Positions 5,985 to 64,000 of a DNA stretch of 64,000 bases are shown here, in pieces. The notes under the pieces are model-generated. The model was not told the origin of the DNA. It searched no databases and saw nothing but the letters and a program-made list of their open reading frames with translations. This DNA is from Candidatus Nomurabacteria bacterium (GTDB lineage Bacteria; Patescibacteriota; Saccharimonadia; Saccharimonadales; Saccharimonadaceae): the NCBI GenBank assembly GCA_031257295.1, contig JAIROX010000004.1, positions 1-64,000 of the forward strand, in the 5' to 3' direction. The translations under genes were made by a program, and so were the position numbers. Position 1 is the first letter of the stretch. Every line of letters begins with the position of its first letter.

Positions 5985-6043
5985 TACCTTGTAGAGTAAC
6001 AAACATATAACTTAGTGTGAGAGAGTTAAGGATATTGTTGTAT

Positions 6044-7324
6044 ATGTGTAGATTATCCATTGGCCTATTCATAGTTTTTTTGTCATCGCTAGCGGTTACA
6101 GCAATTGTTAGTGCCTTAGCTATTACTAATATCACTCCAAGCCAAGGTCCTGTTGCTGGCGGTCAAATAGCCACTATCACTGGCACTGGCTTTGAGCCCG
6201 ACACGCCAACTCTTCAAAACTTCGGCGCCGACAAATGCGTCAATATGACGGTTTATGACGGCAGTAACCCTGGCGCACTGCTCACGCTGACCGATCCGCG
6301 CAATGACCAGACGTATACCATCGGCAAGCTCGCAGACAACAACTGTTGGATGCTCGATAACCTGAAACTTGGTTCGACGACTGGCACGATGACGCTGACC
6401 GACGCCGACACCGACCTCCACACCAAAACCACCTTCACTCTGCCGCAACTGGTCACCTCTGGCTCCTTTAACTATGATGTCCCGGGTGCTTACGGTCCAG
6501 TCCCCGGCGATGGTAGCGGAGACCATAACTACGGTTATCTTTACAACTGGGCGGCCGCCACGGCTGGCGCGACTAGGGGGTCGATGCCTGGCACCGGTGT
6601 CAACAATAACATTGCTCCAGACTCGATCTGTCCCAGCGGTTGGCATATGCCAACCGGCGGCGCCTATAACAACCCCAGTAATGAGCTGTCCCAACTCAAT
6701 GCCAAGATGGCTGGCTTTACCGACGACCAAGACCCCGCCTACTCAAGTGGCAATGCCTTCATCACCCTCTACGCCAACTGGCAATACGCCGGCTCCTTCA
6801 GAGGCGTATTTTCTGGCAGATACTTGAGCAGCTTTGATCAACAAGGCGCGGGGGACTGGATGTGGTCGTCATCGGCCTATACCGCCAACGCCGACCGGGC
6901 TAACTATGCTTATATTCTCATGCATAGCCCATCTTTTATTAGCCCTGGCACCTATGATCCTCGCAGTAGCGGCTACGCTGTGCGGTGTTTGGCTGCTACG
7001 AGCACAGTTGACGCCAACCATTACGACCCGAAACCATATGTGACGGTGGACGGCGTGGCGGTTGACCCGGGCAATGTGGAATTGGTTTCTGATACTGAAT
7101 TGCGGATAAAAATGCCAGCGCACGTAGCCGGGGTGGTTGATGTTGTAATAACTTTGGGTGGCGTTTCGCAAACTGTCCAGTACGAATATCTTCCTAGTGC
7201 GCCGAATACTGGTGCTGGCAAAGCCACGGCTGGCAGCGCAATGGCTGAGTTTTGGGCGCTGGCCGTCGCCATCATGCTGGGCGTGAGCTTTGCCGCTCGC
7301 AAGCTGGCCCAAAAGCGCAGATAA
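6044..7324 (+). CDS. Secreted surface protein with IPT/TIG and FISUMP-like domains and a C-terminal anchor
   Basis: A likely exported cell-surface protein of about 426 residues. It has an N-terminal signal/hydrophobic segment (about 5-27), then an IPT/TIG-like immunoglobulin fold (ITPSQGPVAGGQIATITGTGF). Next is a long domain resembling the Fibrobacter succinogenes major paralogous domain, with ICPSGWHMPTGG, a YNWAAAT stretch and a closing YAVRCLA. A second short IPT-like strand set follows (VTVDGVAVDPGNV). The tail is APNTGAG, a hydrophobic stretch and RKLAQKRR, which resembles a sortase-type signal although the usual LPxTG is absent. The frame is open from GTG 6017. AAGGA at 6028-6032 favours TTG 6038 or ATG 6044. 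Third codon positions are richer in C than in neighbouring genes, which may reflect transfer. Confidence 0.75.
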   Translation: MCRLSIGLFIVFLSSLAVTAIVSALAITNITPSQGPVAGGQIATITGTGFEPDTPTLQNFGADKCVNMTVYDGSNPGALLTLTDPRNDQTYTIGKLADNNCWMLDNLKLGSTTGTMTLTDADTDLHTKTTFTLPQLVTSGSFNYDVPGAYGPVPGDGSGDHNYGYLYNWAAATAGATRGSMPGTGVNNNIAPDSICPSGWHMPTGGAYNNPSNELSQLNAKMAGFTDDQDPAYSSGNAFITLYANWQYAGSFRGVFSGRYLSSFDQQGAGDWMWSSSAYTANADRANYAYILMHSPSFISPGTYDPRSSGYAVRCLAATSTVDANHYDPKPYVTVDGVAVDPGNVELVSDTELRIKMPAHVAGVVDVVITLGGVSQTVQYEYLPSAPNTGAGKATAGSAMAEFWALAVAIMLGVSFAARKLAQKRR

Positions 7325-11068: not shown

Positions 11069-12121
11069 ATGAACTTATTTAAAGGTGTGGGCGACTTCTT
11101 TGCTCTGGATGTTGGAACGAGCAGTATCCGAATAGTACAATTATCTGGCTCGGAAAAGACTGGATGGAGTTTGCAGGGCTATGGTTATGCAAGCGTAGAC
11201 CCAAAAATTGCTCAAAGTAACTCAGAAGACGGCAAAAGAAAGCTGGGAGAAGCTGTTCTGACTGTTATCGGCCAGAGTGGTATTAAGACTAAAAATGTGG
11301 CTATTAGTTTGCCAGCAAGTAAAACGTTTACCACAGTTATTGATGTGCCGAATCAGCCGCTTCCGGAAGTTCAAAAACTGATTAAGTACCAACTTGACCA
11401 GTATGTGCCGATGGCTGTTGACGATGCTAAAGTTGACTGGTCTATCATGGGACAATCGCCTAGGGACGGCGCGCAGATAGAGGTATTATTGTCGAGCGTC
11501 GCTAAAGACTATAGTGAAGAACGCATGGAGTTTGTCGAATCGCTAGGCCTAAATGTCGTAGCTATGGAACCTGATCCAATAGCGATGTCTCGCTCTCTAA
11601 ACCCAGCCGGTGTACCAGACGCTAGGTTGATTATTGATTTCGGAGAGGTTTCGACGGATTTGGTTGTAACTTATGCTGATGCGCCAAGACTAGTCCGTTC
11701 TATTCCTGGTGGTTTGCAGGCTTTAATTAAAGCTGCTGCGCAGAATTTAAATATTAAAGATGATCAGGCAAAACAATTTATTCTTAAATTCGGTTTAGCT
11801 CAAGATAAACTAGAGGGCCAGGTTGTAAAGGCGCTAGAATCAACTCTAGACAACTTCGCGGCTGAAATTGTAAAGTCGGCTAAGTTCTTCCAAACAAAAT
11901 ACTCAACTATCCCGATAGGTGGAGTCTTGTTGGCTGGTTTTGCTGGCGCCATACCCATGATGAGCCAGTACATTGAGACCAAGACATCTATACCTACTAT
12001 CCAAGGTAACCCATGGCAGCGAGTCAATGTTTCTAAGCAGTATCAAGATCAATTATTACCAGTAGCGTCAGAATTTGCAGTAGCCATAGGCTTAGCTGAG
12101 AGAGGTAATGAAAATGGTTGA
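11069..12121 (+). CDS. pilM: Type IV pilus assembly protein PilM
   Basis: PilM is a cytoplasmic actin-like ATP-binding protein that holds the inner-membrane pilus platform through the tail of PilN. The 350 residues begin with FFALDVGTSSIRIVQL, the phosphate-1 loop of the actin/FtsA fold. They continue with NVAISLPASKTFT and LIIDFGEVSTDLVVTY (phosphate 2), then GGVLLAGFAGAIPMMSQYI (adenosine loop). It is the first gene of pilMNO-x-BTC. The next gene starts inside its last codons. Confidence 0.93.
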   Translation: MNLFKGVGDFFALDVGTSSIRIVQLSGSEKTGWSLQGYGYASVDPKIAQSNSEDGKRKLGEAVLTVIGQSGIKTKNVAISLPASKTFTTVIDVPNQPLPEVQKLIKYQLDQYVPMAVDDAKVDWSIMGQSPRDGAQIEVLLSSVAKDYSEERMEFVESLGLNVVAMEPDPIAMSRSLNPAGVPDARLIIDFGEVSTDLVVTYADAPRLVRSIPGGLQALIKAAAQNLNIKDDQAKQFILKFGLAQDKLEGQVVKALESTLDNFAAEIVKSAKFFQTKYSTIPIGGVLLAGFAGAIPMMSQYIETKTSIPTIQGNPWQRVNVSKQYQDQLLPVASEFAVAIGLAERGNENG

Positions 12122-12911
12122 GATTAATCTTATACCAGACGTTAAGCGCGAATTACTAAAGGCGCAAAAATTACGTAATATGATTACTGTCATATCAATT
12201 ATGGCCAGCATTGCAGCGATTGGCGTGATAGTCGTGTTGGCTGTTATCGTATTCGCCGTGCAGGGCGTTGCTAGTATGCTTGCGGATAAAAGCATCCAAG
12301 ATGAATATAGCAAGTTCGAAAGCCATAACGGTGTTGTTGAGGCGCTAACTCTACAGAGTCAATTGACTGGCATAGAAAATCTTAAGGATAAAAAATACCT
12401 CGCTTCAAGGATTTTTGGCGTAGTTAACGAGTTGAGCGAAGCTGCAACCAATCCTGCTATAGGTATTACTGAGCTAAGGTTTGATAAAGAGGCTGGTACG
12501 TTAACAATAGATGGCCAGGCTAGTCAAGGGTTCACGGCGCTAGAAGCATTTAAGAAAACTGCCGACCGTACGGTAATTTACTACAGAGACGGTGATGGCG
12601 CTGGATATTCAAGAACCAGTAAGTGCAAGTACACGGCTGCAGATGGCAAAGGTAAGTACAGTAAGGCTAACTTGATGTCTAGCGAAATAACCACCAGTGA
12701 AGTGTCTTATGGCCAGGATGCCAGCGGCAATAAGGTGTTGCGTTTTACGATTACACTTACCCTAGACGAACACGTGCTAGCTTTCAACTCTTTTGACAGC
12801 GACGCAATCGACATTTGTGCTCCAGGTGCTCAAAATGTGACTGACTCATATATCCAGATTCCAAAGGGTATGTTCACGCAAAAAGCACAAGATATTGAGG
12901 AGGGTAAGTAA
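12114..12911 (+). CDS. pilN: Type IV pilus assembly protein PilN-like
   Basis: Inner-membrane platform protein. The N-terminal VEINLIPDVK matches the short PilN motif (INLLP) that inserts in PilM. A single membrane segment follows at about residues 25-52 and then a periplasm-side domain. At 265 residues it is longer than Gram-negative PilN (about 180). AGAGG at 12101-12105 suits ATG 12114 better than ATG 12108. It overlaps pilM by 8 bases and ends inside the start of pilO (TAATG). Confidence 0.85.
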   Translation: MVEINLIPDVKRELLKAQKLRNMITVISIMASIAAIGVIVVLAVIVFAVQGVASMLADKSIQDEYSKFESHNGVVEALTLQSQLTGIENLKDKKYLASRIFGVVNELSEAATNPAIGITELRFDKEAGTLTIDGQASQGFTALEAFKKTADRTVIYYRDGDGAGYSRTSKCKYTAADGKGKYSKANLMSSEITTSEVSYGQDASGNKVLRFTITLTLDEHVLAFNSFDSDAIDICAPGAQNVTDSYIQIPKGMFTQKAQDIEEGK

Positions 12912-13627
12912 TGGCACAAGAAGTTGCAATTAAGAAACGCCAAGCAATATCAAACGCTAGCCGTAATATGTTTATAGCTGTAGCTGGAGCGTCGGTTCTG
13001 GTGGGCTTTGCGATTGTTGGTTCAATATTCTTGATTCAGAAGATGATGTTTAACGCACGAGTAATTGGTGCCAAGCAAGACACGGCCAGTATCCTAACTG
13101 ATAACAATAAAGAGATAGTCACTCTGGAAAATAACATTAAGGCTTTAAGAAGCAATAGCGCTCTTCGTAAGGTTATGGTTGGTGATGGCAGCGACTCATT
13201 GAGGGTGCTACCCGATGCGCTACCGTCATTCTATAATCAAGAGGCCTTAGGAGCCAGCGTAATGAATGTATTGCTCGATCCCGTAATAACTGTAGATTCG
13301 TTCTCCTTTGCCAGTATAGGTGCAAGTGAGGGTGAAGCGACAGCAGGCAAGTTGCAGTCAATTGAATTTAGTTTTACTGCTCAAGGCACACCGGAAGAGG
13401 TATCGAAAGCTATTCAAAACCTAGAACATTCTATACGACAGGTCGACATAACTCAGATGTCAGTATCCTTCAGCAAGTCAGAACTCGGAGGTAGTATATT
13501 GGAGCTAAGGGCAACTGCGCGCGCGTACTACACATCGTCGGTCTCAATTAAACTAGGCGAGAAAGAGATTAGTAGCGGCGATGGTGCCAAGTCGAGCGGA
13601 AAGGAAACTAGCAGTGAAAAAAACTGA
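12911..13627 (+). CDS. pilO: Type IV pilus assembly protein PilO-like
   Basis: Partner of PilN in the inner-membrane alignment complex, assigned mainly from position. The 238 residues have one membrane segment at about 21-45, a coiled-coil-like stretch (NNKEIVTLENNIKALRSN), and a C-terminal alpha/beta domain with SIEFSFTAQGTPEEVSKAI, which fits the ferredoxin-like PilO fold. A strong ribosome site (GAGGAGGG) precedes ATG 12911. The next gene starts 14 bases before its stop. Confidence 0.78.
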   Translation: MAQEVAIKKRQAISNASRNMFIAVAGASVLVGFAIVGSIFLIQKMMFNARVIGAKQDTASILTDNNKEIVTLENNIKALRSNSALRKVMVGDGSDSLRVLPDALPSFYNQEALGASVMNVLLDPVITVDSFSFASIGASEGEATAGKLQSIEFSFTAQGTPEEVSKAIQNLEHSIRQVDITQMSVSFSKSELGGSILELRATARAYYTSSVSIKLGEKEISSGDGAKSSGKETSSEKN

Positions 13628-13955
13628 TATTGCGCTAATTGTGTTTATTGCAGGTATTAGCATAGTTATAGCTTATTTTGTTGCCAAGGCAGTGTTGGGC
13701 GATCCTAATAATCAGTCTGTCATGGTCAAAACTGCTCGGCCAATTAGCTCAAATGTGGCAAAGCCCAGCACAGATATATTCAACGATGAAGCCATAAACC
13801 CAACCGTAGAAATTTGCATTGGCGGTGGTACTTGCACCGATAACGCCACTGAAAATTCAACTCAAGACTCGAGTGACAGTAGCCAAGGGTCAGGATCTTC
13901 TTCTAGCAACACAGGTGACGAAACGAGTGGCGGTGGAGCCAGCAAACAGCCCTAA
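13614..13955 (+). CDS. Small membrane protein in the pilus operon
   Basis: A 113-residue protein with one N-terminal membrane segment (about 5-26), a short conserved-looking middle with two cysteines (EICIGGGTCT), and a disordered tail rich in Ser, Gly, Asn and Asp. The position after pilO is where pilP lies in Gram-negative operons, but I see no PilP homology. PilP tethers the platform to an outer-membrane secretin, which this lineage is thought to lack. The start is GTG 13614 with GGAAA upstream, overlapping pilO. Confidence 0.75.
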   Translation: MKKTDIALIVFIAGISIVIAYFVAKAVLGDPNNQSVMVKTARPISSNVAKPSTDIFNDEAINPTVEICIGGGTCTDNATENSTQDSSDSSQGSGSSSSNTGDETSGGGASKQP

Positions 13956-13978
13956 GGCATTAGGCGATAGGGGGTGAG

Positions 13979-15745
13979 GTGGCACTACTAACTAGAGACA
14001 TCGAAGATAAACTGGTCAGTCTATTAATTGACGAAGGTTTAGCTGATAAAAAAGCGCTTGAAGCAGCGGTTGCTGAGAGTACAAAAAACGGTCAGCCATT
14101 ATTTTCTCTACTCATCAATAAGGGTGTAACTGATAATGAAACTTTGACGCATATCACGGCTTATGTGTCTGGTGTGCCTTATGTTAATTTAACTAAATCC
14201 AACCTCGATCAAAATGTTTTAGACCTAATTCCGTTTGATATCGCGCAGCGCACTATGTCGGTGCCGATTGCCGAGGTCCAGAACCGCCTAGCAGTAGCTA
14301 TGATTGACGCCACAAACATACAGGCCGTAGATTATCTGACATCGTTAATTAAACGTCCGATAAGAGTATTCATGGCCTCCCAGGAAAGCGTGTCGCATGT
14401 GTTGGATGAGTACAAAGCCGATCTATCTAGTGTGGACCAAGCAGCCGAGATAACTGTCGAAGAAGAACAGGCTCAAGAAAACCGCGATGTTAAAACAATT
14501 GTTCAAGATTCGCCAATATCTAAGGCCCTAACGGCTATCTTGGAATATGCGGTACGCGCTAAAGCTTCGGATATTCACATAGAACCACTGGAAAAAGCCT
14601 TGAAGATTCGTGCTCGCGTTGATGGCGTGCTGCGCGAAGTCATGCAATTGCCAAAATCAATTGAACCAGCTTTGATTAGTCGTATTAAAATTATGTCCAA
14701 CCTGAAGATTGACGAGCACCGTATACCGCAAGATGGTGAATTTGTGGTTAAAGTTGGTGATAAAGAGGTTGACCTTCGTATAGCAATTAGCCCAGTAATT
14801 TGGGGCGAGCAAGTGGTTATTCGTCTCCTGGATAAGTCTGGTAGTTCATTTGATCTTGAAGATATGGGTTATGCTGGGCGATCTCTTAGGGCTATCCGTA
14901 ATGGGATTAAGCGCCCGAATGGTATGATTTTGACTTCTGGCCCGACTGGCTCCGGTAAGTCGACCAGCTTGTATGCTCTGGTAAAGGAGATAAAAGACGA
15001 ATCGATCAATATTATTACACTTGAAGATCCGGTTGAGTATAAGATGGACGGCGTAAACCAAATACAAGTAAATGAAGACGCTGGCTTAACTTTTGCATCT
15101 GGGCTACGCTCGATTCTACGTTTAGACCCAGATGTTGTGCTAGTAGGTGAGATTCGTGATAAAGAAACTGCGGCTCTGGCCGTGCAAGCAGCTTTAACTG
15201 GCCACTTGGTGCTCAGTACTTTACACACCAACTCGGCAGCTGGTATTTTGCCACGTCTTTTGGATATGGACATTGAACCATTCTTGTTGGCCAGCACGAT
15301 TAATACTGTGATTGGCCAGCGTCTGGTGCGTCGGATTGGTGAAAGACGCGAAGCGGTTGACTCAACGCCACTTGAAACCGAAGAAGTCAAGAAGGCCATC
15401 GGTGGCTTATTGCCTAAAACGGCTGCTGATGTACCTGCTGTGTCAGAAGATCTAGGCTATAAAGACTTGCCACTTGCCACCCAAAACGCTTATACTCTAG
15501 TACGGGGGATCGAAACACCCCAGCAGCCAGGTGGCTACAAAGGTCGTGCTGGTGTCTACGAGGTAATGGATATCAACGAGACTATCCAAAAGCTAATTGT
15601 AGCGCGAGCCACCAGCAGCGAAATCCAAAAAGCTGCAGTAGAAAGCGGTATGATTACCATGCGGCAAGACGGATTTTTGAAAGTATTAAACGGCGTAACT
15701 ACAATAGAAGAAGTTAACCGCGTAACAGCCGATATGGGATCATAA
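13979..15745 (+). CDS. pilB: Type IV pilus extension ATPase PilB
   Basis: Hexameric ATPase that drives pilin polymerisation. The 588 residues have a GspE N-terminal (MshEN-like) domain in about 1-150, then the motor with SGPTGSGKST near 320, the Asp box (IITLEDPVEY), the Walker B region (LRLDPDVVLVGEIRD) and the His box (GHLVLSTLHTN). The zinc-binding four-cysteine motif found in many GspE/PilB proteins is absent; residues LPLATQNAYTL fill that region. The start is GTG 13979 after GGGGTGAG. Confidence 0.95.
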   Translation: MALLTRDIEDKLVSLLIDEGLADKKALEAAVAESTKNGQPLFSLLINKGVTDNETLTHITAYVSGVPYVNLTKSNLDQNVLDLIPFDIAQRTMSVPIAEVQNRLAVAMIDATNIQAVDYLTSLIKRPIRVFMASQESVSHVLDEYKADLSSVDQAAEITVEEEQAQENRDVKTIVQDSPISKALTAILEYAVRAKASDIHIEPLEKALKIRARVDGVLREVMQLPKSIEPALISRIKIMSNLKIDEHRIPQDGEFVVKVGDKEVDLRIAISPVIWGEQVVIRLLDKSGSSFDLEDMGYAGRSLRAIRNGIKRPNGMILTSGPTGSGKSTSLYALVKEIKDESINIITLEDPVEYKMDGVNQIQVNEDAGLTFASGLRSILRLDPDVVLVGEIRDKETAALAVQAALTGHLVLSTLHTNSAAGILPRLLDMDIEPFLLASTINTVIGQRLVRRIGERREAVDSTPLETEEVKKAIGGLLPKTAADVPAVSEDLGYKDLPLATQNAYTLVRGIETPQQPGGYKGRAGVYEVMDINETIQKLIVARATSSEIQKAAVESGMITMRQDGFLKVLNGVTTIEEVNRVTADMGS

Positions 15746-15755
15746 GGGAGGGTAA

Positions 15756-16820
15756 ATGCAAGAAGTACGCATAGAATATCTACTAGAAGAGACAGTTAAA
15801 AAGAAGGCTTCCGACCTTCATATTCAGGTTGGATTACCACCGATTTTGCGTATTGACGGCGCTCTAATACCTGTGCCAAATATGCCAGTGCTCAACGAGC
15901 AGATGGTGGAGTCGCTAACTTTCACGATTTTGGATGACGACCAACAGCAAATTTTGCTAAAGGATAAAGAATTTGATTTTAGCTTTGCCTTTGGTGACCT
16001 AGGCCGGTTCCGTGTAAATGCTTTCCACGAGCGTGGTAACCTAGGCGCAGCTTTGCGCTTGATCCCGAATGTCATCCAGAGTATAGCTGAGCTTGGCCTG
16101 CCGCCAATCGTTTCGTCATTTGCAGAATATCCACGTGGCTTGGTGTTGGTGACTGGCCCGACTGGCTCCGGCAAGTCAACCACTTTAGCGGCACTGATTG
16201 ACAAAATCAACAACGAAAAAGCTCAACATATCATCACTATTGAAGACCCGATTGAGTTTACCCACAAGTCCAAAAGGTCTGTAGTGGTGCAGCGTGAAGT
16301 CCACTACGACACCTATTCGTTCTCGGTAGCACTGCGTAGTGCCTTGCGCCAGGACCCAGATGTGGTGCTAATCGGTGAGATGCGTGATCTAGAGACGATT
16401 AGTGCCGCTATCACCATTGCAGAAACGGGGCACTTGGTATTTGCTACACTACACACCAACTCGGCAGCTCAAAGTATCGACCGTATCACAGATGTCTTCC
16501 CACCACATCAACAGCCACAGATTAAATCTCAGTTGGCTAATATTTTGCAGGCAATTTGTTCGCAACGTCTAGTCCCATCTATCGGTGGTGGCCGCGTGGC
16601 TGCAGCCGAAATTTTAATAGCAAACTCAGCCGTACGCAATATTATTCGCGAAGGTAAGACCCATCAGCTTGATGCTGTCATTCAAACAGGCATAGACCAA
16701 GGTATGCAGACCATGGACCGCACATTAGTTAAGATGGTTCAGACCGGCGTTATTACGCATGATAGTGCTCGAGAGTTCGCGGTCGACTTAACGGAGTTTG
16801 AAAGGTTAATGAGGGGCTAA
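15756..16820 (+). CDS. pilT: Type IV pilus retraction ATPase PilT
   Basis: ATPase that depolymerises the pilus and powers twitching. The 354 residues have Walker A TGPTGSGKST near 132, the Asp box TIEDPIEF, Walker B DPDVVLIGEMRD, His box GHLVFATLHTN and the PilT-specific AVRNIIREGK near 291, close to the AIRNLIRE motif needed for retraction. That motif separates it from a second PilB. A strong GGGAGG precedes ATG 15756. pilC follows after 3 bases. Confidence 0.95.
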   Translation: MQEVRIEYLLEETVKKKASDLHIQVGLPPILRIDGALIPVPNMPVLNEQMVESLTFTILDDDQQQILLKDKEFDFSFAFGDLGRFRVNAFHERGNLGAALRLIPNVIQSIAELGLPPIVSSFAEYPRGLVLVTGPTGSGKSTTLAALIDKINNEKAQHIITIEDPIEFTHKSKRSVVVQREVHYDTYSFSVALRSALRQDPDVVLIGEMRDLETISAAITIAETGHLVFATLHTNSAAQSIDRITDVFPPHQQPQIKSQLANILQAICSQRLVPSIGGGRVAAAEILIANSAVRNIIREGKTHQLDAVIQTGIDQGMQTMDRTLVKMVQTGVITHDSAREFAVDLTEFERLMRG

Positions 16821-16823
16821 AGC

Positions 16824-18023
16824 ATGAAGAAGTTCGTATACAAGGCCCGTGAAACAGCGACTGATAAGATTGTTAAGTCAACGGTTCAGGCTGAAAGCGA
16901 AAGCGCGGCTGGCAAGTTGCTAATTGAGCGTGGTTTGGCGCCAATCAGCTTGCACGAAGATCAGGGTGGTTTACTCCAAAAAATAAACGGCCGTATCCCG
17001 GTTAAGGATAAGATCGTGTTTACTAGGCAGCTGGCCACGCTAATTGGCGCTGGCCTGCCACTCACTCAAAGCTTGCATACAGTGTTAGACCAAACTCAGA
17101 ACAAAGCCTTCAAGGCCATTATTGAAGACATTGTTACTACAGTGGAAAGTGGTAAGTCACTCGGTGAATCATTCGGTAAGCATCCAGATGTTTTTAATAA
17201 AGTCTACCTATCTCTGGTTGCGGCTGGTGAAGTTTCGGGTACGCTAGACGATTCCTTGAAGCGCATTGCCGCACAGCAGGAAAAAGACGCTGCTATGATG
17301 AGCAAAATTAAAGGTGCCTTAACTTATCCTATTATTGTGGTGTTCGTCATCTTTGGCGTGATGGCATTTATGCTCTTCACAGTTGTGCCACAAGTAGAGA
17401 AGCTTTATGAAGACATGGGCGAGCAATTGCCATTCTTAACTCAAATCATGGTAGGTGCAGCTAACTTCTTACTCGGTTTTTGGTGGTTGGTGCTTATTAT
17501 GGTGGTTGGCTTAGTACTTGGCTTGCGTCAATACCTAAAGACTGAAAGTGGTATTAAATTCAGTGACACCTTCAAGCTTAATGTGCCTTTGTTCGGCGGG
17601 CTGTTCAAGCGCCTTTATATGGCTCGTTTTACTCGCACGGCCCAGACCTTATTGGCCACAGGCGTGGCCATGCTGGACACCTTGCACATCAGTGGTGAGG
17701 CCACCAGCAACACTATCGTGCAGCAAAGTATCGAAAATGCTGCCGAAAAGGTCAAAGCTGGTAAACCACTATCTGTAGCCATCAAAGACCAAGATTACAT
17801 CTTACCGCTGGTGCCACAGATGGCCGGTATAGGTGAGCAATCTGGTAAGATTGACGAAATGCTCGGTAAAGCTGCTCAGGTATATGAAGACGAACTCGAC
17901 GAGATGATTCGCACAATTTCCACCATGATCGAGCCTATCTTGATGGTGCTTTTAGCAGTTATGGCCGGTGGTATGATCGGCGCTATCCTGTTCCCAATCT
18001 ACGGTTTGGTTAACTCTGTTTAA
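16824..18023 (+). CDS. pilC: Type IV pilus inner-membrane platform protein PilC
   Basis: Polytopic core protein that links the ATPases to the growing pilus. The 399 residues have two GspF domains: one with FTRQLATLIGAGLPLTQSL before a first membrane pair (about 170-240), and a second with FTRTAQTLLATGVAMLDTL before the last membrane segment. The closing FPIYGLVNSV is typical (usually PIY). Its last 14 bases overlap the end of a gene on the opposite strand. Confidence 0.95.
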   Translation: MKKFVYKARETATDKIVKSTVQAESESAAGKLLIERGLAPISLHEDQGGLLQKINGRIPVKDKIVFTRQLATLIGAGLPLTQSLHTVLDQTQNKAFKAIIEDIVTTVESGKSLGESFGKHPDVFNKVYLSLVAAGEVSGTLDDSLKRIAAQQEKDAAMMSKIKGALTYPIIVVFVIFGVMAFMLFTVVPQVEKLYEDMGEQLPFLTQIMVGAANFLLGFWWLVLIMVVGLVLGLRQYLKTESGIKFSDTFKLNVPLFGGLFKRLYMARFTRTAQTLLATGVAMLDTLHISGEATSNTIVQQSIENAAEKVKAGKPLSVAIKDQDYILPLVPQMAGIGEQSGKIDEMLGKAAQVYEDELDEMIRTISTMIEPILMVLLAVMAGGMIGAILFPIYGLVNSV

Positions 18024-19757: not shown

Positions 19758-20270
19758 ATGAAACAACGAGAAATATCAACTAAAAAAGGCTTTACTATCA
19801 TCGAGGTGGTCTTGGTACTGGCTATTGCTGGTCTTATCTTCTTGATGGTGTTCCTAGCTTTGCCTGCTTTGCAGCGTAATCAACGCGATACACAGCGTAA
19901 AGATGATGTGAGCATCGTGGGTTCAGCGGTGACGAACTACACCAGTAACAATAGGGGCAGCCTACCTGCTGCTGGCACATACACCTTGAGTAGCGGTACT
20001 TGGTCAACGGTAACCGGTGGAACTGGTTTTGCTAAATACATCAAAGAGGTGTCTAGCGCAGTGTCTGATATCGCAGTCCTGAGTGGTTCTGCTGCAACAA
20101 CTGCAGCCGTATCAGGTGCAACCGAGGAAAAAGTTGTTGTTGCTACTGGCGCACAGTGTGATACTGACGTGTCAAATGGCAAATACATTAAAGGTAGCTC
20201 AGCCCGCAAGAGTGCAGTTTTCATCAAACTTGAAAACGGTGACGGTGCTTTCTACTGCCAAGACGTATAG
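19758..20270 (+). CDS. pilA: Type IV major pilin (prepilin)
   Basis: Structural subunit of the pilus. The 170 residues begin with a 11-residue leader ending in KKG, followed by FTIIEVVLVLAIAGLIFL, the class III signal and the hydrophobic helix. The peptidase should cut after Gly11, leaving Phe1 and Glu5. The C-terminal domain has one pair of cysteines (QCDTD and FYCQDV) that could form the usual D-loop. It has its own promoter and a strong terminator, so it can be made in excess over the minor pilins. Confidence 0.92.
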   Translation: MKQREISTKKGFTIIEVVLVLAIAGLIFLMVFLALPALQRNQRDTQRKDDVSIVGSAVTNYTSNNRGSLPAAGTYTLSSGTWSTVTGGTGFAKYIKEVSSAVSDIAVLSGSAATTAAVSGATEEKVVVATGAQCDTDVSNGKYIKGSSARKSAVFIKLENGDGAFYCQDV

Positions 20271-20380: not shown

Positions 20381-21247
20381 ATGCTAGAGGTTATGACCAG
20401 TTTATTTCTGTTCGTGGTGGGCGCATGCCTAGGCAGCTTTGCCGTAGCACAGGTGTGGCGCCTGCGCGCCCGACAACTTGAGGGACTAAAGCAGGCCCAT
20501 AAAAAATACGATAAGGCTGAATATTCAAGACTACACAAACTAGTTGGCCACACAGTCCAGCGCGACCGTTCCGTCTGCCTAGCCTGCGGCTACCAGCTGC
20601 GTTGGCTCGACCTGCTACCAGTGGTAAGCTGGGCTCTTCTGAGAGGCAAGTGCCGCAAGTGCCGCAAGCCGATAGGCCTGGCGGAATTCGCGGCCGAAAT
20701 GCTGCTAGGCGCTCTATTCGTGGTCTCGTATCTATTTTGGCCGTATCAACTGGCCACAGTGCCGAGCATTATCGCCTTAGCGGTATGGTTTGTCTTGCTC
20801 ACCGCACTGGCTGTTTTGTTCATCTACGACCTAAAATGGTCGCAGATGCCGTCAAAACTATTGTATTTTTGCGTAGTTTGTGCTATAATATTCCTAATCT
20901 GTAATATCTTGCAGGGTAGTTTTGGTGTTGCCCAGATTCCCAGCTTAGTAGTCGCCCTGGTAGTCTTGCCGGGCCTCTACTTGGCACTCAACTTGGTATC
21001 TAAAGGCAAATGGGTGGGTGACGGCGATTACATTCTTGCCATCAGCCTGGCTCTAGTTTTGGCCAACTACTTTTCGGCCGTTATGACGCTGTTTCTAAGC
21101 AATCTGCTCGGATGCTTGGTTTACGTGTTCATTGCGCTAGCTAACAGGCAAAACCGGCCCAAGCGAATACCGTTCGGGCCACTACTGATAGTCGGCTTTT
21201 TGTTAGCGTTTTTCATAAACTGGGCCAGGCTAGGCTTAACTTTATAA
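20381..21247 (+). CDS. pilD: Prepilin peptidase PilD
   Basis: Membrane aspartyl protease that cuts prepilin leaders and methylates the new N-terminus. The 288 residues have a cytoplasmic zinc site of C66-x2-C69 and C91-x2-C94, as in TFPP proteins. The aspartates sit in IYDLKWSQMP and in VGDGDYILA (GxGD-type motif). About eight hydrophobic segments are visible. A TGC-TAATAT extended -10 sits 8 bases before the ATG and there is no ribosome site. Confidence 0.95.
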   Translation: MLEVMTSLFLFVVGACLGSFAVAQVWRLRARQLEGLKQAHKKYDKAEYSRLHKLVGHTVQRDRSVCLACGYQLRWLDLLPVVSWALLRGKCRKCRKPIGLAEFAAEMLLGALFVVSYLFWPYQLATVPSIIALAVWFVLLTALAVLFIYDLKWSQMPSKLLYFCVVCAIIFLICNILQGSFGVAQIPSLVVALVVLPGLYLALNLVSKGKWVGDGDYILAISLALVLANYFSAVMTLFLSNLLGCLVYVFIALANRQNRPKRIPFGPLLIVGFLLAFFINWARLGLTL

Positions 21248-21356
21248 AAAGTCCGTTTCATCTGTTGTATTTACTACGCTTATGCTATAATTTTACTTGA
21301 AAAAGTATAAGCTTTCTTGCCGTTGGTGGGCAAAAGCGGAGTGTTTTATCAAAACT

Positions 21357-22172
21357 ATGAGGTGTAAAAACTACAAACAAGCGTTCACGATAGTAGAGGT
21401 AATCTTGTTTTTGGCGGTGACAGGCTTGCTTTTTGTGGCCTTGCTTGGCGGTACGGCAGCTTCCGTGCGAAACCAGCGCTACAACGACAGTGTGGCGACG
21501 TTTAAAAACGCTATGCAAGAACAATATAGCCTAGTGTCGAATGTCCAAAATTCTAGGGATCTTGACCAAAGAATTATATGCGAAGAAAAAGATGGTGCTA
21601 TGGTGCCGGCGCCAAATGGCACAGCTGCTCCTGGTATGTCTAACTGTCTTATCTATGGTAGGGTCGTAGAATTTACTAATGGTGGATATGACTATAGGGC
21701 CGCCAATGTTATTGGTTTAGATATCAAGACTATTGAGTCTAACGAATTAAATGGTAAGACGGAAAAGCAGATCTTTGATAGAGTTAAGGTGTCTATTGAG
21801 ACGGCAAACGGCGTACCTGTTTTAGAGACTAAGCAGTTAGAGTGGGGAGCGCACTTACGCAAGCCTAGCTCTGAAGACGCGGCGGTTGGTGGCCTTCTGA
21901 TACTTCGCTCACCGCGTAGTGGATCAGTCTGGACATTCAATTTTGAGACCGCCCGTGATGAATCTAAGAACACCCTGGTTAGCTCATTGAATAGTTCAAC
22001 TAGCACAAAAAGAGACTTATGTGTCGCGTCACCAGATAGTAGCGCAGGTTCCGTAAGGGCAGTAGTAATTGGCTTGACTGGTGGTGCTAACTCGTCCGCA
22101 GTGCAGATAGCACCTCTTGATGCAACAGTTAATGGCGTTTCGCCAGTGGTATGCAATGGCAATAACATGTAA
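21357..22172 (+). CDS. Pseudopilin (minor pilin-like)
   Basis: A 271-residue protein with a short leader MRCKNYKQA, then FTIVEVILFLAVTGLLFVALL, the prepilin helix with Glu at +5. Ala replaces the usual Gly before the cut site, which may slow processing. The soluble part has several cysteines. The frame is open from TTG 21297, only 5 bases after a TATAAT, so a longer product from a leaderless mRNA is possible; I prefer ATG 21357 because prepilin leaders are short. It is the first of four genes that look like minor pilin and priming components. Confidence 0.8.
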   Translation: MRCKNYKQAFTIVEVILFLAVTGLLFVALLGGTAASVRNQRYNDSVATFKNAMQEQYSLVSNVQNSRDLDQRIICEEKDGAMVPAPNGTAAPGMSNCLIYGRVVEFTNGGYDYRAANVIGLDIKTIESNELNGKTEKQIFDRVKVSIETANGVPVLETKQLEWGAHLRKPSSEDAAVGGLLILRSPRSGSVWTFNFETARDESKNTLVSSLNSSTSTKRDLCVASPDSSAGSVRAVVIGLTGGANSSAVQIAPLDATVNGVSPVVCNGNNM

Positions 22173-23694
22173 AAAAGGCGACACTATCATAGAAGTCATG
22201 TTCGCTACGGCGGTATTTGCGCTGGTGGCGGTGCTTGGGTTAACACTAATGAACTCTGGCGTTTCAACCGCTCAGGCTTCGCTAGAAATAACCTTAGCTC
22301 GTGAGGCCGTCGACTCTCAAGCCGAAGCGCTCAGGATGATCCACAACGCCTATGCCGCGCAGGCCGGCAAGAAAGTTGTTGATAGTGGCACGGCTGCTCG
22401 GTGGTCAACAATAGACGGCCTAATACAGCCAGGCGGCACAGATATAGGCAGCCTAAATGATGAGGCTGGAGGCTGCAGTATACCAGATACTACTAAGAAA
22501 CGTTTCGTAGTTGATGTGCGGGATGACTTAAACATTATTAGCACTGCAGATGGAATAAAGCCAGCTAGCACTTTCCCGAGGCTCGTCTATGGCAATGATA
22601 GTAATAATATTGATAAGAGCGAAAACGGCAACGCCGGCAACACTAGTGGTGTGTGGGCTGAGGGTATTTGGATTCAGGCGGTTAAGTCGGTCAAGGACAC
22701 TGCTGGTAATTACCTAGCGATAGATTTTCATATTAGAACTTGCTGGGATTCTCCTGGGCGCAGTGCCCCTTCTACGATTGGCACGATAGTGCGGCTGTAT
22801 AATGTAGGCACCGATTTTGGTAGTGGTATAATTGGCGGCGGCCCGACTGAACCCACAACCCCCGTCGACGTTAATAAAGATTTTAGTTACACTGGCTCTG
22901 TCCAAACATATCATGTCGCTAAGACCGGTAAGTATAAGCTTGAAGTTTGGGGTGCACAATTTGTCGCTGACAGCAAATATGCTACCGTTAGCGGCGGAGG
23001 TGGTTATTCGACGGGCACTGTGGCATTATCTGTTGGTCAAGCGTTAGGTGTTTATGTTGGTGGATCGTCTGGGTTCAATGGTGGCACTGGTACTACTCCT
23101 GGGGCAGGTGCCACAGACATGAGATTAGATGGGAGCACATTATACCATAGAATTATTGTAGCCGGCGGTGCTGGTCGGTGCCAAGTAGTGGCAGGCTCTG
23201 GCACGTGTTCAGATGGTGGTGCAGGAGGGGGTTTGTCTGGCCTAAATGGTAAAATAATAGGAATGAATTGCAGTACCTGCGGTGACATAGTAAACCCTAC
23301 CGGTGGTACACAGGTATCGGCTGGCTCAAGCGGAACGTTTAGCGGTCTCAATGGTTCTGGCACTTTTGGCAGTGGTGGTGGCGAAGCCTATTTTGCTAAT
23401 GGCGGTGGCGGTGGTTGGTATGGCGGTAGTGCCGGCTGTAATACTCCTCAAAATGGAGTTATGTGTTTTGCTGCTGCCGCGGGCGGATCGGGTTGGATCT
23501 ATACAGCCGGTTCGTTTGCTGTGTGGCAAGCTGGTAATTCGGTAGACGCGGCTAAGTATCAGTTGTCCAGCGCTTATTACCTAACTAATGCTACAACTGC
23601 GTCTGGCAATACTGCTTTCCCAGCCCCAGGCGGTGGTAACGAAACTGGTCATAGCGGTAACGGATTTGCGAGGATAACATGGTTGGGGGTGTAA
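22156..23694 (+). CDS. Pseudopilin fused to a glycine-rich (PF12810-like) domain
   Basis: A 512-residue minor pilin-like protein. The leader MAITCKKG is followed by DTIIEVMFATAVFALVAVLG, a prepilin helix with Glu at +5 and Asp instead of Phe at +1. Residues of about 40-225 form a pilin-type domain. From about 240 the sequence becomes a glycine-rich repeat domain: YKLEVWGAQ, GGGGYSTGTVALSVGQ, ATDMRLDGSTLYHRIIVAGG, then WYGGSAGCNT. This matches the pattern of the Gly_rich family also seen in the protein at 62 kb. At a pilus tip it could act as the adhesive part. It overlaps the previous gene by 17 bases; the next gene starts at its stop (TAATG). Confidence 0.82.
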   Translation: MAITCKKGDTIIEVMFATAVFALVAVLGLTLMNSGVSTAQASLEITLAREAVDSQAEALRMIHNAYAAQAGKKVVDSGTAARWSTIDGLIQPGGTDIGSLNDEAGGCSIPDTTKKRFVVDVRDDLNIISTADGIKPASTFPRLVYGNDSNNIDKSENGNAGNTSGVWAEGIWIQAVKSVKDTAGNYLAIDFHIRTCWDSPGRSAPSTIGTIVRLYNVGTDFGSGIIGGGPTEPTTPVDVNKDFSYTGSVQTYHVAKTGKYKLEVWGAQFVADSKYATVSGGGGYSTGTVALSVGQALGVYVGGSSGFNGGTGTTPGAGATDMRLDGSTLYHRIIVAGGAGRCQVVAGSGTCSDGGAGGGLSGLNGKIIGMNCSTCGDIVNPTGGTQVSAGSSGTFSGLNGSGTFGSGGGEAYFANGGGGGWYGGSAGCNTPQNGVMCFAAAAGGSGWIYTAGSFAVWQAGNSVDAAKYQLSSAYYLTNATTASGNTAFPAPGGGNETGHSGNGFARITWLGV

Positions 23695-24431
23695 TGAAAG
23701 CCAAAAAAGGGTTTACTATTATTGAGCTAACGCTCGCTATGACATTTGTTTCCATACTTCTTATCACGGTTTTTATCTTAGTCATGCAAATCACCAAGAT
23801 ATACACTAAGGGCACATCCATTAAAGAGGTTAACTCGGTCGGTCGGTCATTGCTCAGCGATTTTAATCAGACTATAGGTGCCTCGCCAGTTAAGCCTGGG
23901 CTAGGAACTGACGGCAATAAGTATTTTATGATAGATGCAGCTAAAGCTGGCGGACGTTTCTGTACGGGTTCATACAGCTATATATGGAATAACGGTAAGA
24001 CGCTAACTGATATAAGGGACGGTGTTGCCAACGTGAAGGCAAATATGTTTAAGACTAGTAGCAGTAATGTACCGGTTCGTTTGCTCAAGGTAAGTGATTC
24101 AAGCCGAACTTATTGTAATAGTGGTGATGACGTCGTTACTATTGACGGGAGTAAGATTAACGCAACTGAGTTAATAAGTTCTAACGAGAGCGAAGTTGCT
24201 ATATATGACCTCTTTGTCTATAAACCGATCATAGACGATAGCGCTAACGCAAGTGGTCAGGCCCTGTACACACTTAGCTTTGTGCTTGGCACCCTAGGTA
24301 ACAATGTGGGTGAGGGCGGTTTGATTGACGGTAATAACCAGTGCAAAGCACCGAGTGACGCCGGATCAGACTTTAATTATTGTGCGATTAATAAATTTGA
24401 CCTATCAACTAGAGCAATGGGGAGCAACTAA
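23694..24431 (+). CDS. Pseudopilin (PulJ/PilW-like position)
   Basis: A 245-residue protein with leader MKAKKG, then FTIIELTLAMTFVSILLITVF, the prepilin helix with Glu at +5. The rest is a soluble domain with four cysteines (CTGSYSY, YCNSGDD, QCKAPS, YCAINK). It starts at the stop of the glycine-rich pseudopilin with GGGGGTG upstream, so expression is coupled. It is probably one of the minor pilins that prime assembly. Confidence 0.8.
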   Translation: MKAKKGFTIIELTLAMTFVSILLITVFILVMQITKIYTKGTSIKEVNSVGRSLLSDFNQTIGASPVKPGLGTDGNKYFMIDAAKAGGRFCTGSYSYIWNNGKTLTDIRDGVANVKANMFKTSSSNVPVRLLKVSDSSRTYCNSGDDVVTIDGSKINATELISSNESEVAIYDLFVYKPIIDDSANASGQALYTLSFVLGTLGNNVGEGGLIDGNNQCKAPSDAGSDFNYCAINKFDLSTRAMGSN

Positions 24432-24439
24432 AGGAGGAT

Positions 24440-25693
24440 ATGAGCATGCAAAAAACTTTCACTAAGTTTAAAGACGGGGCAGTGTCTATTTATGTTGTAA
24501 TATTTACAGCACTACTTGTCAGTATCATTACTATCAGCTTTGTGCGCATCATGGTGGGTGATCAAAGACAATCGACTAACGCTGATCTATCACAGTCTGC
24601 CTATGACTCAGCTCTAGCCGGTGTTGAAGACGCTAAACTGGCTCTTCTAAAGTTTAAGAAAGATTGCCAAATGAACAAGAATGCTTCAGCGGGTTGCACT
24701 ACGCTATATAATCAGATAGTTAGTAACGAGTGCAATCAGTTTAGGGAGGTGCTTGACGGTACTCAAACTACAAACAAAGAGATCACCGTTCAAAGAGACC
24801 AGGGTGCTGATAAGGATATGGACCAAGCTTACACTTGCGTAAAGGTGGCTTTGGAAACTGAGGACTACTTGGGCACACTGGGTCAGGGTCAGCCTTACTT
24901 GATTCCGTTGGTAGCGGAAATGAACGATAGTGGAGAAAGAAAGAAAATTGATACTATCGAGGTGTCGTGGTACGTCGAGGGGGATGCTGAAGCTGGTAAA
25001 ACTGGAATAGCGTCGCCGTTGGGTGCTAGCGCTGGTGTAAATCCCACTACTGAATCTAAGCCACTCCAGCAAACAGAAGAAAAATGGAACGGTAAAGAAA
25101 GTGGTAAGACTGCTCCTTCATTACTACGCTTTCAGTTGGTCCAAGCTGATAATAGCTTTACACTAGATAACTTTAATGGTGGTAACTCTGTTAACACCGA
25201 CCGCGGTACGATATTGTTGTATCCGATCGTTAGTGACACTGTTGTAACGGATATTTATGCTCTAGGCAAGTCAGCTGTTTATGGGCAAGTAGATGCGCCA
25301 ACTTACGCTAAATGTGGAAAAGATTTTAATAAGGTGTATGCTTGCACCGCTACGCTCAAGATGCCAGGCACTGTTGGCAACCAGAGCACGTCAACTATTT
25401 TCGCTAAGTTAACTGGTTATTATCATTCCTCAACAACATATAAGGTAATTATGAAGGGCGTCGATGGTAAGGTTATCAGATTTGATAGCGTGCAGCCATC
25501 CGTGGATGCTACTGGGCGTGCTAATGACTTGTATCGCCGTGTCGACTCTCGCATCCAAATGTATGGTGACGTTGTTCTGCCGGAATTTTCGGTTGATATG
25601 AGCGAAAAAGGTACTGCTAAAGGCCTATTCTGCAAAGGGCTGACTGTGACAGATAAAACTACAGATACTGGTAACACTGGTTGCGACAGCTAG
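24440..25693 (+). CDS. PilX-like pilus assembly protein
   Basis: A 417-residue protein with an N-terminal membrane helix (GAVSIYVVIFTALLVSIITI) and, after it, QSAYDSALAGVEDAKLALLKF. The latter resembles the PilX N-terminal pattern in which the first residues after the helix contain an A-x-x-G-x-E-D-A motif. No prepilin cut site with Glu+5 is visible. The long C-terminal part is soluble and ends with two cysteines. AGGAGG directly precedes ATG 24440. It closes the minor pilin operon. Confidence 0.7.
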   Translation: MSMQKTFTKFKDGAVSIYVVIFTALLVSIITISFVRIMVGDQRQSTNADLSQSAYDSALAGVEDAKLALLKFKKDCQMNKNASAGCTTLYNQIVSNECNQFREVLDGTQTTNKEITVQRDQGADKDMDQAYTCVKVALETEDYLGTLGQGQPYLIPLVAEMNDSGERKKIDTIEVSWYVEGDAEAGKTGIASPLGASAGVNPTTESKPLQQTEEKWNGKESGKTAPSLLRFQLVQADNSFTLDNFNGGNSVNTDRGTILLYPIVSDTVVTDIYALGKSAVYGQVDAPTYAKCGKDFNKVYACTATLKMPGTVGNQSTSTIFAKLTGYYHSSTTYKVIMKGVDGKVIRFDSVQPSVDATGRANDLYRRVDSRIQMYGDVVLPEFSVDMSEKGTAKGLFCKGLTVTDKTTDTGNTGCDS

Positions 25694-58332: not shown

Positions 58333-61566
<3,234 letters not shown>

Positions 61567-61966: not shown

Positions 61967-62048
61967 AAAATTATACAGATAAGCATAAGCTTACTGGTTG
62001 TCTTGGCGTGTAGAGCCGTGGCAAAAACAAAAAATAACAGATACAAAT

Positions 62049-64000
62049 ATGAGCGAGAAACTAAAACTGGCTTTTAGCAATAAAAGGGTGTCAGTACCCG
62101 TATTAGTGCTGTTTATTCTGCTTTTTTGCCTGCTAACGTCATTGATTTATTCATATTTTTCAGACGTGATTAGCAAAAAGTTTAAAGTTGGTGTTGCTGA
62201 ATTTACCTGCACACAAACCGTTAATGAGTATGTAGCGCAAGTATCTGGAACATATCGTCTAGAGACATGGGGCGCTCAGGGTGGAAATAACGGAGCTGCC
62301 AATACTGGTGGCCACGGTGGTTACTCGGTTGGTAAAGTTAGCTTGAAAAAGGATGACAGATTGTATGTGCGTGTTGGTTGCCAAGGGCAAACTACTATTG
62401 GCAGCTATGCTCCAGGGGGTTGGAATGGTGGCGGACAAGGTGGTAGGTATAGTGGGGGTTATGCCACTGGTGGCGGTGGTGGTGCAACTGACATTCGTCT
62501 GGGTACAGATAGCCTTTACAATCGTTTGATCGTGGCCGGCGGTGGTGGTGGCTCAGGATCAAACAATGGCACGGATACGCTAAATAACAAAGGTGGTGCA
62601 GGCGGCGGGCCTGTCGGCTCCAACGGCGCGGCTGACGCGGCTTACATTGGTGGTGGTGCTACGCTGACGCAAGGTGGTACAACGGGCTCGGACAGTCGTC
62701 GAGATGCTGTTAATGGCCCAGGGACTTTTGGACAGGGTGGTAGCATGCTTGCCGGTACGACAAATGGGTCTACCACTGGTGGTGGTGGTGGTGGTGGCTG
62801 GTACGGTGGTGGCGCAGGTGTCTGGGAAGGCGCGGGCGGTGGTGGTGGTTGGACCTTTACCCAAGGCAATGTTGCGTCTGGTCTGACAAACTCATCTTAT
62901 ACCGGTGGTGTTTGGGGTATTACTGATAGTTTTTACTACTTACGTGATTCTCAGACATTATCAGGCGCACTCATCGGTGTCATACCATCCACTAGCGGTA
63001 GCGGCACGATAGATGGCAAAACCGGTGATGGTTTCGCTCGTATAGAGCTGATTTCGAATGCTCCGGTTATCACACTTAACGGTGATAACCCGTTAGAAAT
63101 AATAGCTGGTACACCATACTCAGAGCCAGGTTACAGTGCCCAAGACGTAGAGGACGGTGATTTGACAAGCCAAGTTGTCGTAGACAGTTCGGCCGTCGAC
63201 CACAACACGGTGGGCGACTATGAGGTAAAGTACGAAGTTATAGATAGCGACGGCTATAAAACTACAGCCATACGTGCGGTACATGTTGTTCCGGCTGACT
63301 ACCTAAATACTGAGGTCCGCAACCAAGCTGGTTGTGCCGATGATGGCAGCGAGTGCTGGTATCCAGACTATCAGAACACCAATTACGTTTGGTATAGTGG
63401 TTATCTGTGGCAAGTTATCAAGGTAAACGAGAACACCAACACTACCAAGCTCGAAATGGTCGATGCTGCTACTTCAATCAGCGGCTATGCGAACTCTGGT
63501 ACGCCCTACGCTAACAGTTATTATCGCAGTTGGCTTAACCAAGACTTTTGGAGCACACTTTACAACGGTGGTCACTATGTGGCGAACGAGGATTTCTGTG
63601 TGGGCAACGAGAATGATGAATGTGGTGTAGTGGTTGGTGATAACGTGGGGCTAATTACCTATAACGAGTATATTAATCTTTCTAATATACTTGACCAGTC
63701 TAGTAGTAGGGCTATTGGTACGGCGTATGCTAGTAATACTAATAATCGCTGGATCGTATCATCGTGGAACAATTCTCCGAATAGTTCCAACTACAACGAG
63801 GTAATAGGTGTTCATCCCACCATAAATATTAATGCTAGCATACCCATCAGCGGTGGCATAGGCGACTTCAGCGATCCGTATATATTGTATGGTGATCGGC
63901 CAGCAATTAACGGTGATGCGTTAACTGGTCGTCGTTCTGGTGAATATGTAGAGTTTGCAGGTATGACCTGGCGAATCGTAAACGCCGGTACTGATGCAAA
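62049..64000 (+). CDS. Large glycine-rich surface protein (cut by window end)
   Basis: The frame stays open from ATG 62049 to the window end (650 codons so far). A short basic start is followed by one membrane segment at about 16-37. A glycine-rich domain of about 280 residues comes next: RLETWGAQGG, GGYSVGKVSLKKDDRLYVRV, ATDIRLGTDSLYNRLIVAGGG and GGGGGWYGGGAG, ending DGFARIELIS. This is the PF12810-like pattern seen in the pseudopilin at 22 kb. Then follows an Ig-like DUF5011 domain (VITLNGDNPLEIIAGTPYSEPG, EDGDLTSQVVVDSS, VGDYEVKYEVIDSDGY). After it comes a domain like those of DUF6273 proteins (YVWYSGYLWQVIKV), which begins again at the edge (YVEFAGMTWRIV). Probably an anchored adhesin or surface-layer type protein. 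Confidence 0.85.
   Translation, partial: MSEKLKLAFSNKRVSVPVLVLFILLFCLLTSLIYSYFSDVISKKFKVGVAEFTCTQTVNEYVAQVSGTYRLETWGAQGGNNGAANTGGHGGYSVGKVSLKKDDRLYVRVGCQGQTTIGSYAPGGWNGGGQGGRYSGGYATGGGGGATDIRLGTDSLYNRLIVAGGGGGSGSNNGTDTLNNKGGAGGGPVGSNGAADAAYIGGGATLTQGGTTGSDSRRDAVNGPGTFGQGGSMLAGTTNGSTTGGGGGGGWYGGGAGVWEGAGGGGGWTFTQGNVASGLTNSSYTGGVWGITDSFYYLRDSQTLSGALIGVIPSTSGSGTIDGKTGDGFARIELISNAPVITLNGDNPLEIIAGTPYSEPGYSAQDVEDGDLTSQVVVDSSAVDHNTVGDYEVKYEVIDSDGYKTTAIRAVHVVPADYLNTEVRNQAGCADDGSECWYPDYQNTNYVWYSGYLWQVIKVNENTNTTKLEMVDAATSISGYANSGTPYANSYYRSWLNQDFWSTLYNGGHYVANEDFCVGNENDECGVVVGDNVGLITYNEYINLSNILDQSSSRAIGTAYASNTNNRWIVSSWNNSPNSSNYNEVIGVHPTININASIPISGGIGDFSDPYILYGDRPAINGDALTGRRSGEYVEFAGMTWRIVNAGTDA

What the first reader, a model, noticed from the sequence alone, without database searches (positions are those of the whole stretch)
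22156..23694. Minor pilin carrying a glycine-rich adhesin-like domain
A prepilin helix with Glu+5 is fused to about 270 residues of glycine-rich repeats. The stretches EVWGAQ, ATDMRLDG and RIIVAGG are shared with the large surface protein at 62 kb (ETWGAQGG, ATDIRLG, RLIVAGGG). Placing such a domain at a pilus tip would give a natural host-binding device for an epibiont. I know of no described pilus tip protein of this kind in this lineage.
Basis: partly seen in the sequence, partly recalled or inferred. Interest (0 to 1): 0.75.

Follow-up and report, generated by a model that had tools for sequence, protein, structure and literature searches.

The report
Pilus-tip pilin carrying ALK-type glycine-rich domain
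A tiny epibiotic bacterium has fused a folded glycine-rich domain, of the family found outside cells in the animal receptor ALK, onto a minor pilin of its type IV pilus, probably to grip other cells; relatives carry other domains at the same spot, so this pilin looks like a socket for exchangeable binding modules.

Summary
Window 22156-23694 encodes a 512-aa type IV prepilin (KKG|DTIIEV, Glu+5). Residues 256-510 match PF12810 (ALK/LTK glycine-rich domain, GRD; E 1.3e-28). The match is not a composition effect: 154 bits against shuffles of at most -5. A model of the domain is confident (pLDDT 92), and its best PDB matches are all ALK/LTK domains.

The gene is the PilV/GspI member of a complete HIJK minor-pilin set in the T4P-1-type pil operon. 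That pilin is conserved in 140 of 151 family genomes, normally as ~200-280 aa ending right after the pilin fold. The genus-mate lacks the domain. The fusion recurs in all three sampled species of a distant genus, and a different pilin carries a GRD in a fourth genome. Other PilVs carry InlB-like, Fib_succ_major or unidentified modules at the same point.

The pilin tree rejects a single clade of GRD-bearing pilins. Between genera the GRDs (45-48%) are more alike than the pilins that carry them (28-29%). Both point to repeated grafting or exchange.

Best reading: a modular minor pilin that displays a binding domain near the pilus tip, for contact with host cells. The fusion is shown; tip display and binding are inferred. 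New variant of a known kind (modular pilins; TM7x PilX1/PilX2).

The parts
22156..23694 (+). PilV/GspI-type minor prepilin fused to a PF12810 glycine-rich domain (512 aa)
   Evidence: translation, 87 families; orthologues
22156..22179 (+). Prepilin leader MAITCKKG; inferred PilD cleavage after Gly8, Glu at +5
   Evidence: G8, D9, T10 and E13 invariant in 26 PilV orthologues
22180..22806 (+). Pilin module (residues 9-217): long alpha-1 helix and antiparallel sheet ending ..TIVRLYN
   Evidence: full-length model, blocks mostly pLDDT 75-97 over this part; alignment A5
22807..22920 (+). Linker (residues 218-255), predicted disordered at 221-247
   Evidence: pLDDT below 50 at 221-247 in the full-length model
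22921..23685 (+). ALK/LTK-type glycine-rich domain PF12810 (residues 256-510)
19758..20270 (+). PilA-like pilin (probable major pilin)
   Evidence: N_methyl and TIGR02532 above cut-off
20381..21247 (+). Prepilin peptidase PilD
   Evidence: A24_N_bact 5.9e-21
21297..22172 (+). GspH/FimU-position minor pilin, overlaps the PilV-GRD gene by 17 nt
   Evidence: 43% identical to the G001 orthologue
23694..24431 (+). GspJ/PilW-position minor pilin, start codon overlaps the PilV-GRD stop (TAATG)
   Evidence: 42% identical to the G001 orthologue
24440..25693 (+). GspK/PilX-position protein, hydrophobic N-terminus without the consensus prepilin site
   Evidence: no family match; inferred from operon order
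11069..18023 (+). Pilus assembly genes pilM, pilN/O-like, pilB, pilT, pilC of the same cluster
   Evidence: PF11104, PF00437 twice, PF00482; the two genes at 12108 and 12911 have no informative Pfam match and are inferred from position
61998..64000 (+). Start of a 2653-aa surface protein with several GRDs and Ig-like domains (continues to contig position 69959); same domain family

Best explanation
It is a modular type IV pilin: the conserved I-subunit (GspI/PilV) of the minor-pilin complex that starts and caps the retractable T4P-1 pilus, with an ALK/LTK-type glycine-rich domain joined to its C-terminus by a flexible linker. PilD cleaves the leader, the I-J-K set primes the filament, and the bulky domain ends up at or near the pilus tip (inferred). 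There it acts as a binding head that contacts a surface molecule of the bacterial cell on which this epibiont lives, and PilT-driven retraction pulls the two cells together (inferred). The domain comes from the same family as the GRDs on this genome's large surface proteins. The acceptor pilin takes different modules in different lineages, which fits diversification of the binding target. Shown: fusion, domain identity, operon context, recurrence, modular evolution. Inferred: tip position, binding, the ligand and its nature.
For: PF12810 E 1.3e-28 with shuffle control. GRD model pLDDT 92, pTM 0.92; the first 21 PDB matches are all ALK/LTK GRDs, best E 2.5e-6; profile-to-PDB sequence match to ALK, E 4.1e-16. 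GspI model (TIGR01707) matched at E up to 0.1 by 25 of 26 PilV orthologues, best 3.6e-7. H-V-W-X gene order with overlapping genes after pilD, as in the HIJK/FimU-PilV-PilW-PilX sets (PMC7248040), which sit at the tip (PMC9934059). Orthologues in 140 of 151 family genomes, nearly all plain. Same fusion in three of three g21 genomes; another pilin with a GRD in G147. Other modules at the same joint. One clade of GRD-bearing pilins rejected, p-AU 5e-98. Pilins 28-29% but GRDs 45-48% identical between genera; pilins 65-69% but GRDs 48-53% within g21. In TM7x, deleting pilX2 (added beta-propeller) roughly halves host binding (PMC12206443). In S. sanguinis, modules on PilB and PilC bind host ligands.
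Against: No ligand, expression or localisation data. In structures the I subunit lies just below K, so a module on I may be subterminal. GspI scores stay far below the curated cut-off for the window protein (21.7 bits against 44.35), and a fold search with the full-length model found no solved pilin at E <= 0.001. Foldseek TM-scores to ALK are only 0.32-0.44, so the inner arrangement differs from ALK. GRDs elsewhere are not all adhesins: in ALK the domain receives a protein ligand.
Confidence: 0.6

Rival explanations
1. The tip GRD does not bind the bacterial host but kin cells or the animal gut surface: it sticks to other GRD proteins (this genome encodes 14 more GRD matches on large proteins) or to mucus or cuticle, giving aggregation or gut retention.
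For: 15 GRD matches in the genome, many on multi-domain surface proteins; named carriers of GRDs and PilV modules come largely from termite and ruminant guts.
Against: No evidence of GRD-GRD contacts; Saccharibacteria depend on a bacterial host, so host contact is the primary need (PMC12206443).
Confidence: 0.17
2. The GRD is mainly structural: a bulky cap that keeps the minor-pilin complex at the tip or gates assembly, with no specific ligand.
For: Bulky extra domains on GspK and PilB are argued to force tip location.
Against: Most relatives assemble the same operon with a plain PilV (70 of 86 orthologues end within 17 aa of the pilin fold). Unlike modules replace it, and the GRD diverges faster than the pilin within g21, which does not fit a conserved structural role.
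Confidence: 0.12
3. The protein is not built into pili: the prepilin-like N-terminus only anchors a surface GRD in the membrane.
For: N_methyl scores below cut-off in the window protein; the +1 residue is Asp rather than Phe/Met.
Against: The motif GDT-x-x-E is invariant across 26 orthologues; the gene sits inside, and overlaps with, a pilD-minor-pilin operon; the pilV1 counterpart could not be deleted in TM7x.
Confidence: 0.07
4. The domain serves DNA uptake or another non-adhesive cargo role at the pilus tip.
For: Some tip minor pilins bind DNA (ComP, ComZ; PMC7248040).
Against: No DNA-binding precedent for PF12810 known to me; nothing in the sequence suggests it.
Confidence: 0.03

Closest known systems
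Streptococcus sanguinis modular pilins PilB (vWA) and PilC (lectin) (PMC8179133, PMC9934059)
   Same: Class III signal peptide with Glu5, pilin module, short linker, bulky C-terminal functional module; part of a minor-pilin tip set.
   Different: Different module family; here it sits on the GspI/PilV-type subunit of a full HIJK-type operon; binding not tested.
TM7x (Nanosynbacter lyticus) PilX1 and PilX2 (PMC12206443)
   Same: Same class of bacteria; minor pilins with added C-terminal domains; PilX2 contributes to host binding.
   Different: Those modules are a beta-jelly roll and a beta-propeller on the K-position protein, and PilX2 belongs to the second pilus; the paper describes TM7x PilV1 as elongated by variable loops, with no extra C-terminal domain named.
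ALK/LTK glycine-rich domain (PF12810; PDB 7NX1, 7LRZ, 7NWZ and others)
   Same: Same Pfam family; profile match E 4e-16 and Foldseek E 2.5e-6.
   Different: Shorter, only ~16% identical, TM-score about 0.4; not attached to a kinase.
Phage tail-fibre tip adhesin gp38 of S16/PP01 (PMC12892980)
   Same: Works like it, by analogy: glycine-rich fold at the end of a fibre that recognises a bacterial cell.
   Different: Not shown to be homologous; no gp38 structure appears among the 50 PDB rows listed. Other phage GRD proteins do match the model (TM 0.69-0.77).
GspI / PilV / XcpI core minor pilins
   Same: Operon position, alpha-1 helix, HMM match by 25 of 26 orthologues.
   Different: Large C-terminal module absent from those families.

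Membership tests
Type IV pilins (class III signal peptide) | Short leader ending in Gly/Ala, Glu at +5, about 20 hydrophobic residues | tested here: met
   invariant in 26 orthologues. N_methyl model below cut-off for this sequence, above it for P0002-P0005.
Type IV pilins (class III signal peptide) | Lollipop fold: long alpha-1 helix and antiparallel beta sheet | tested here: met
   Helix 10-68 and strands 166-169, 171-180, 186-197, 206-215, blocks mostly above pLDDT 75; no solved pilin matched at E <= 0.001 by fold search.
Type IV pilins (class III signal peptide) | Cleavage by PilD and assembly into a filament | not testable with these tools
   pilD lies in the operon.
GspI/PilV core minor pilins | Sequence match to the family model and I position in an H-I-J-K gene order | tested here: inconclusive
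   Position met. TIGR01707 matched by 25 of 26 members at E <= 0.1 (best 3.6e-7), but the window protein scores 21.7 bits against a curated cut-off of 44.35.
PF12810 ALK_LTK_GRD | Score above the curated cut-off over the domain | tested here: met
   101 bits against 24.5, profile positions 6-243 of 243; shuffle control.
PF12810 ALK_LTK_GRD | Fold resembling solved ALK/LTK GRDs | tested here: met
   Top 21 PDB matches all ALK/LTK, best E 2.5e-6, though TM-scores only 0.32-0.44.
Modular pilins (Raynaud et al. 2021) | Pilin module joined to a domain not specific to type IV pili | tested here: met
   the same domain family occurs on non-pilin proteins.
Modular pilins (Raynaud et al. 2021) | The added module has a direct role in a pilus function | not testable with these tools
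   Needs mutants or binding assays.

The most novel reading that the evidence does not exclude
In host-associated Saccharibacteria, PilV is a general socket at the pilus tip: the pilin part is inherited vertically while the C-terminal recognition module (GRD, InlB-like repeats, Fib_succ_major, others) is exchanged from the pool of cell-surface protein domains, and the module sets which host cell the epibiont can catch.
Probability: 0.35. Interest if true: 0.8.

Novelty: new variant of a known kind. Interest (0 to 1): 0.62.

Why it matters
How Patescibacteria choose and catch their host is largely unknown. This gives a concrete candidate recognition domain on a pilus subunit whose TM7x counterpart could not be deleted, with a comparative pattern (same pilin, many interchangeable modules) that can be tested across lineages. 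It also places the fold of an animal receptor's ligand-binding region in a bacterial cell-contact device.

Tried and rejected
(1) Composition artefact: rejected by shuffle and reversal controls. (2) Special kinship with the 62-kb protein: rejected as the closest source; nearest by BLAST are a Tannerellaceae GRD (41.5% over 289 columns) and a GRD on the genome's own contig C6 (44.6% over 278), and the tree joins it to the Tannerellaceae GRD (SH-aLRT 91). (3) Origin of the module from the GRD tree: unresolved; one clade of the four PilV GRDs is not rejected (p 0.57), so a single GRD source moved between pilins is as possible as several grafts. (4) Shufflon-like exchange: no notable inverted or direct repeats around the gene. 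(5) Recent foreign DNA by composition: GRD GC 0.51 and GC3 0.37 are like the genome's other GRD at 62 kb (0.54, 0.39), not diagnostic. (6) A mixed pilin/GRD alignment misaligned the two parts and was not used; the full-length model is good for the pilin only. (7) Other GRD proteins of intermediate length in relatives (G004, G076, G227, G329, G352, G360, G379 and others) gave no prepilin N-terminus by my pattern. (8) Second pilus locus: a second PilB exists on C2 but with no pilins beside it.

Full report
Observation. The gene at 22156-23694 is intact and starts with a class III signal peptide, MAITCKKG|DTIIEV, with Glu at +5. Pfam finds ALK_LTK_GRD over residues 256-510 at 1.3e-28. Because glycine-rich sequence invites chance matches, I built a model from GRDs of other phyla only: the real domain scores 154 bits, the best of 1000 shuffled versions -5 and the reversed sequence -19.

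Structure. With 48 GRD sequences AlphaFold2 gives a confident domain (mean pLDDT 92, pTM 0.92). Its 21 best PDB matches are all ALK or LTK glycine-rich domains, from E 2.5e-6, although TM-scores of 0.32-0.44 mean that the inner arrangement is not superposable as a whole. A sequence profile matches ALK at 4.1e-16. Predicted phage proteins match much more closely (TM 0.69-0.77 for the best three), so the fold is also used on phages. In the full-length model the pilin part shows the long helix and the sheet, and residues 221-247 form a disordered linker; the GRD part of that model is poor and I rely on the separate model.

Context. The window carries pilM, pilB, pilT, pilC, a PilA-like pilin, pilD and then four overlapping or abutting genes in the order of the core minor pilins H-I-J-K. 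The gene in question holds the I position. The GspI model is matched weakly by the window protein, but by 25 of 26 orthologues at E <= 0.1, best 3.6e-7. HIJK sets prime the filament and lie at its tip (PMC7248040; PMC9934059). In TM7x this locus corresponds to locus one, whose pilA1, pilV1 and pilW1 could not be deleted (PMC12206443); that correspondence is my inference from gene order and naming.

Distribution. Orthologues of the pilin part are found in 140 of 151 family genomes, with open frames of roughly 190-300 aa in nearly all. The one sampled genus-mate, G001 (JAIRRY010000008.1), has a 231-aa PilV without the domain and no GRD anywhere in an 86%-complete genome. GRDs of any kind occur in 34 of 394 sampled genomes of the family, 16 of 295 of the class and 4 of 380 of the phylum, counting the window genome. 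The PilV-GRD fusion recurs in all three sampled genomes of genus g21 (L067, L098, L099), and a GFTIVELL-type pilin carries a GRD in G147 (L086). The pilins nearest to those of g21 in other genera are plain.

A socket for modules. Of 86 distinct PilV orthologues collected besides the window's, 70 end within 17 residues of the pilin fold and 16 continue for 121-540 residues. The additions are GRDs (3), InlB-like repeats (8, some of them weak matches) and five others, one with Fib_succ_major. They start just after the last pilin strand. The window also encodes a surface protein with Fib_succ_major and IPT domains at 6017-7324, so the same kinds of domain occur on surface proteins and on pilins. 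The clearly named hosts of modular PilVs are ruminant gut and termite samples; this is an observation, confounded by phylogeny and sampling. Reading the termite origin from isolate names such as Th196 and Ct408 rests on my own knowledge of those sample codes, not on a tool result.

Evolution. On the pilin tree the four GRD-bearing PilVs cannot be one clade (p-AU 5e-98), and 13 changes of module state are needed (quick tree, some long branches). The GRD tree is too poorly resolved to say whether there were several grafts or one source moved around (p 0.57 for one clade). Identities point the same way: between window and g21 the pilins are 28-29% and the GRDs 45-48% identical; within g21 the pilins are 65-69% and the GRDs 48-53%. 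Either the module is replaced or it evolves faster than its carrier.

Mechanism. The most likely account is a modular minor pilin that shows a binding domain at or near the tip of the retractable pilus, so that the epibiont can catch its host and pull itself in. Precedents are S. sanguinis PilB/PilC and TM7x PilX2. The glycine-rich tip protein gp38 of T-even phages is an analogy of function only. Tip position, ligand and binding are not shown here.

Novelty. Modular pilins and Saccharibacteria minor pilins with extra domains are known. I found no paper describing a PF12810 domain on a pilin, or PilV of Saccharibacteria as an acceptor of several module types, but the searchable library is open-access only and the supplementary list of 264 modular architectures could not be read. 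I therefore file it as a new variant of a known kind.

Noticed in passing
window 61998-64000, contig C4 61998-69959 (L055): A 2653-aa surface protein with several PF12810 and Ig-like domains starts about 170 bases downstream of a 23S-5S rRNA cluster (58336-61828).
   Followed up: partly
window 6017-7324: Surface protein with IPT/TIG and Fib_succ_major domains; the latter also occurs as a C-terminal module on a PilV of another Saccharibacterium (L162).
   Followed up: partly
L064 (PilV 634 aa), L062 (378 aa), L069 (323 aa), L144 (441 aa): PilV pilins with C-terminal extensions that match no Pfam family above cut-off; possibly undescribed binding modules.
   Followed up: no
G092 contig C4 about 309852-322727: A single open frame of 7672 aa with nine PF12810 domains in a Saccharibacterium genome of about 1.0 Mb.
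   Followed up: no
G000 contig C2 13475-14647 (L218): A second PilB-type ATPase gene with no pilin genes next to it.
   Followed up: partly
window 24440-25693: PilX/GspK-position protein without a consensus prepilin site, as reported for TM7x PilX1/PilX2; 417 aa with no Pfam match.
   Followed up: no
viral matches: Several phage proteins annotated 'receptor protein-tyrosine kinase' match the GRD model, so that annotation is probably carried over from the ALK domain name.
   Followed up: no
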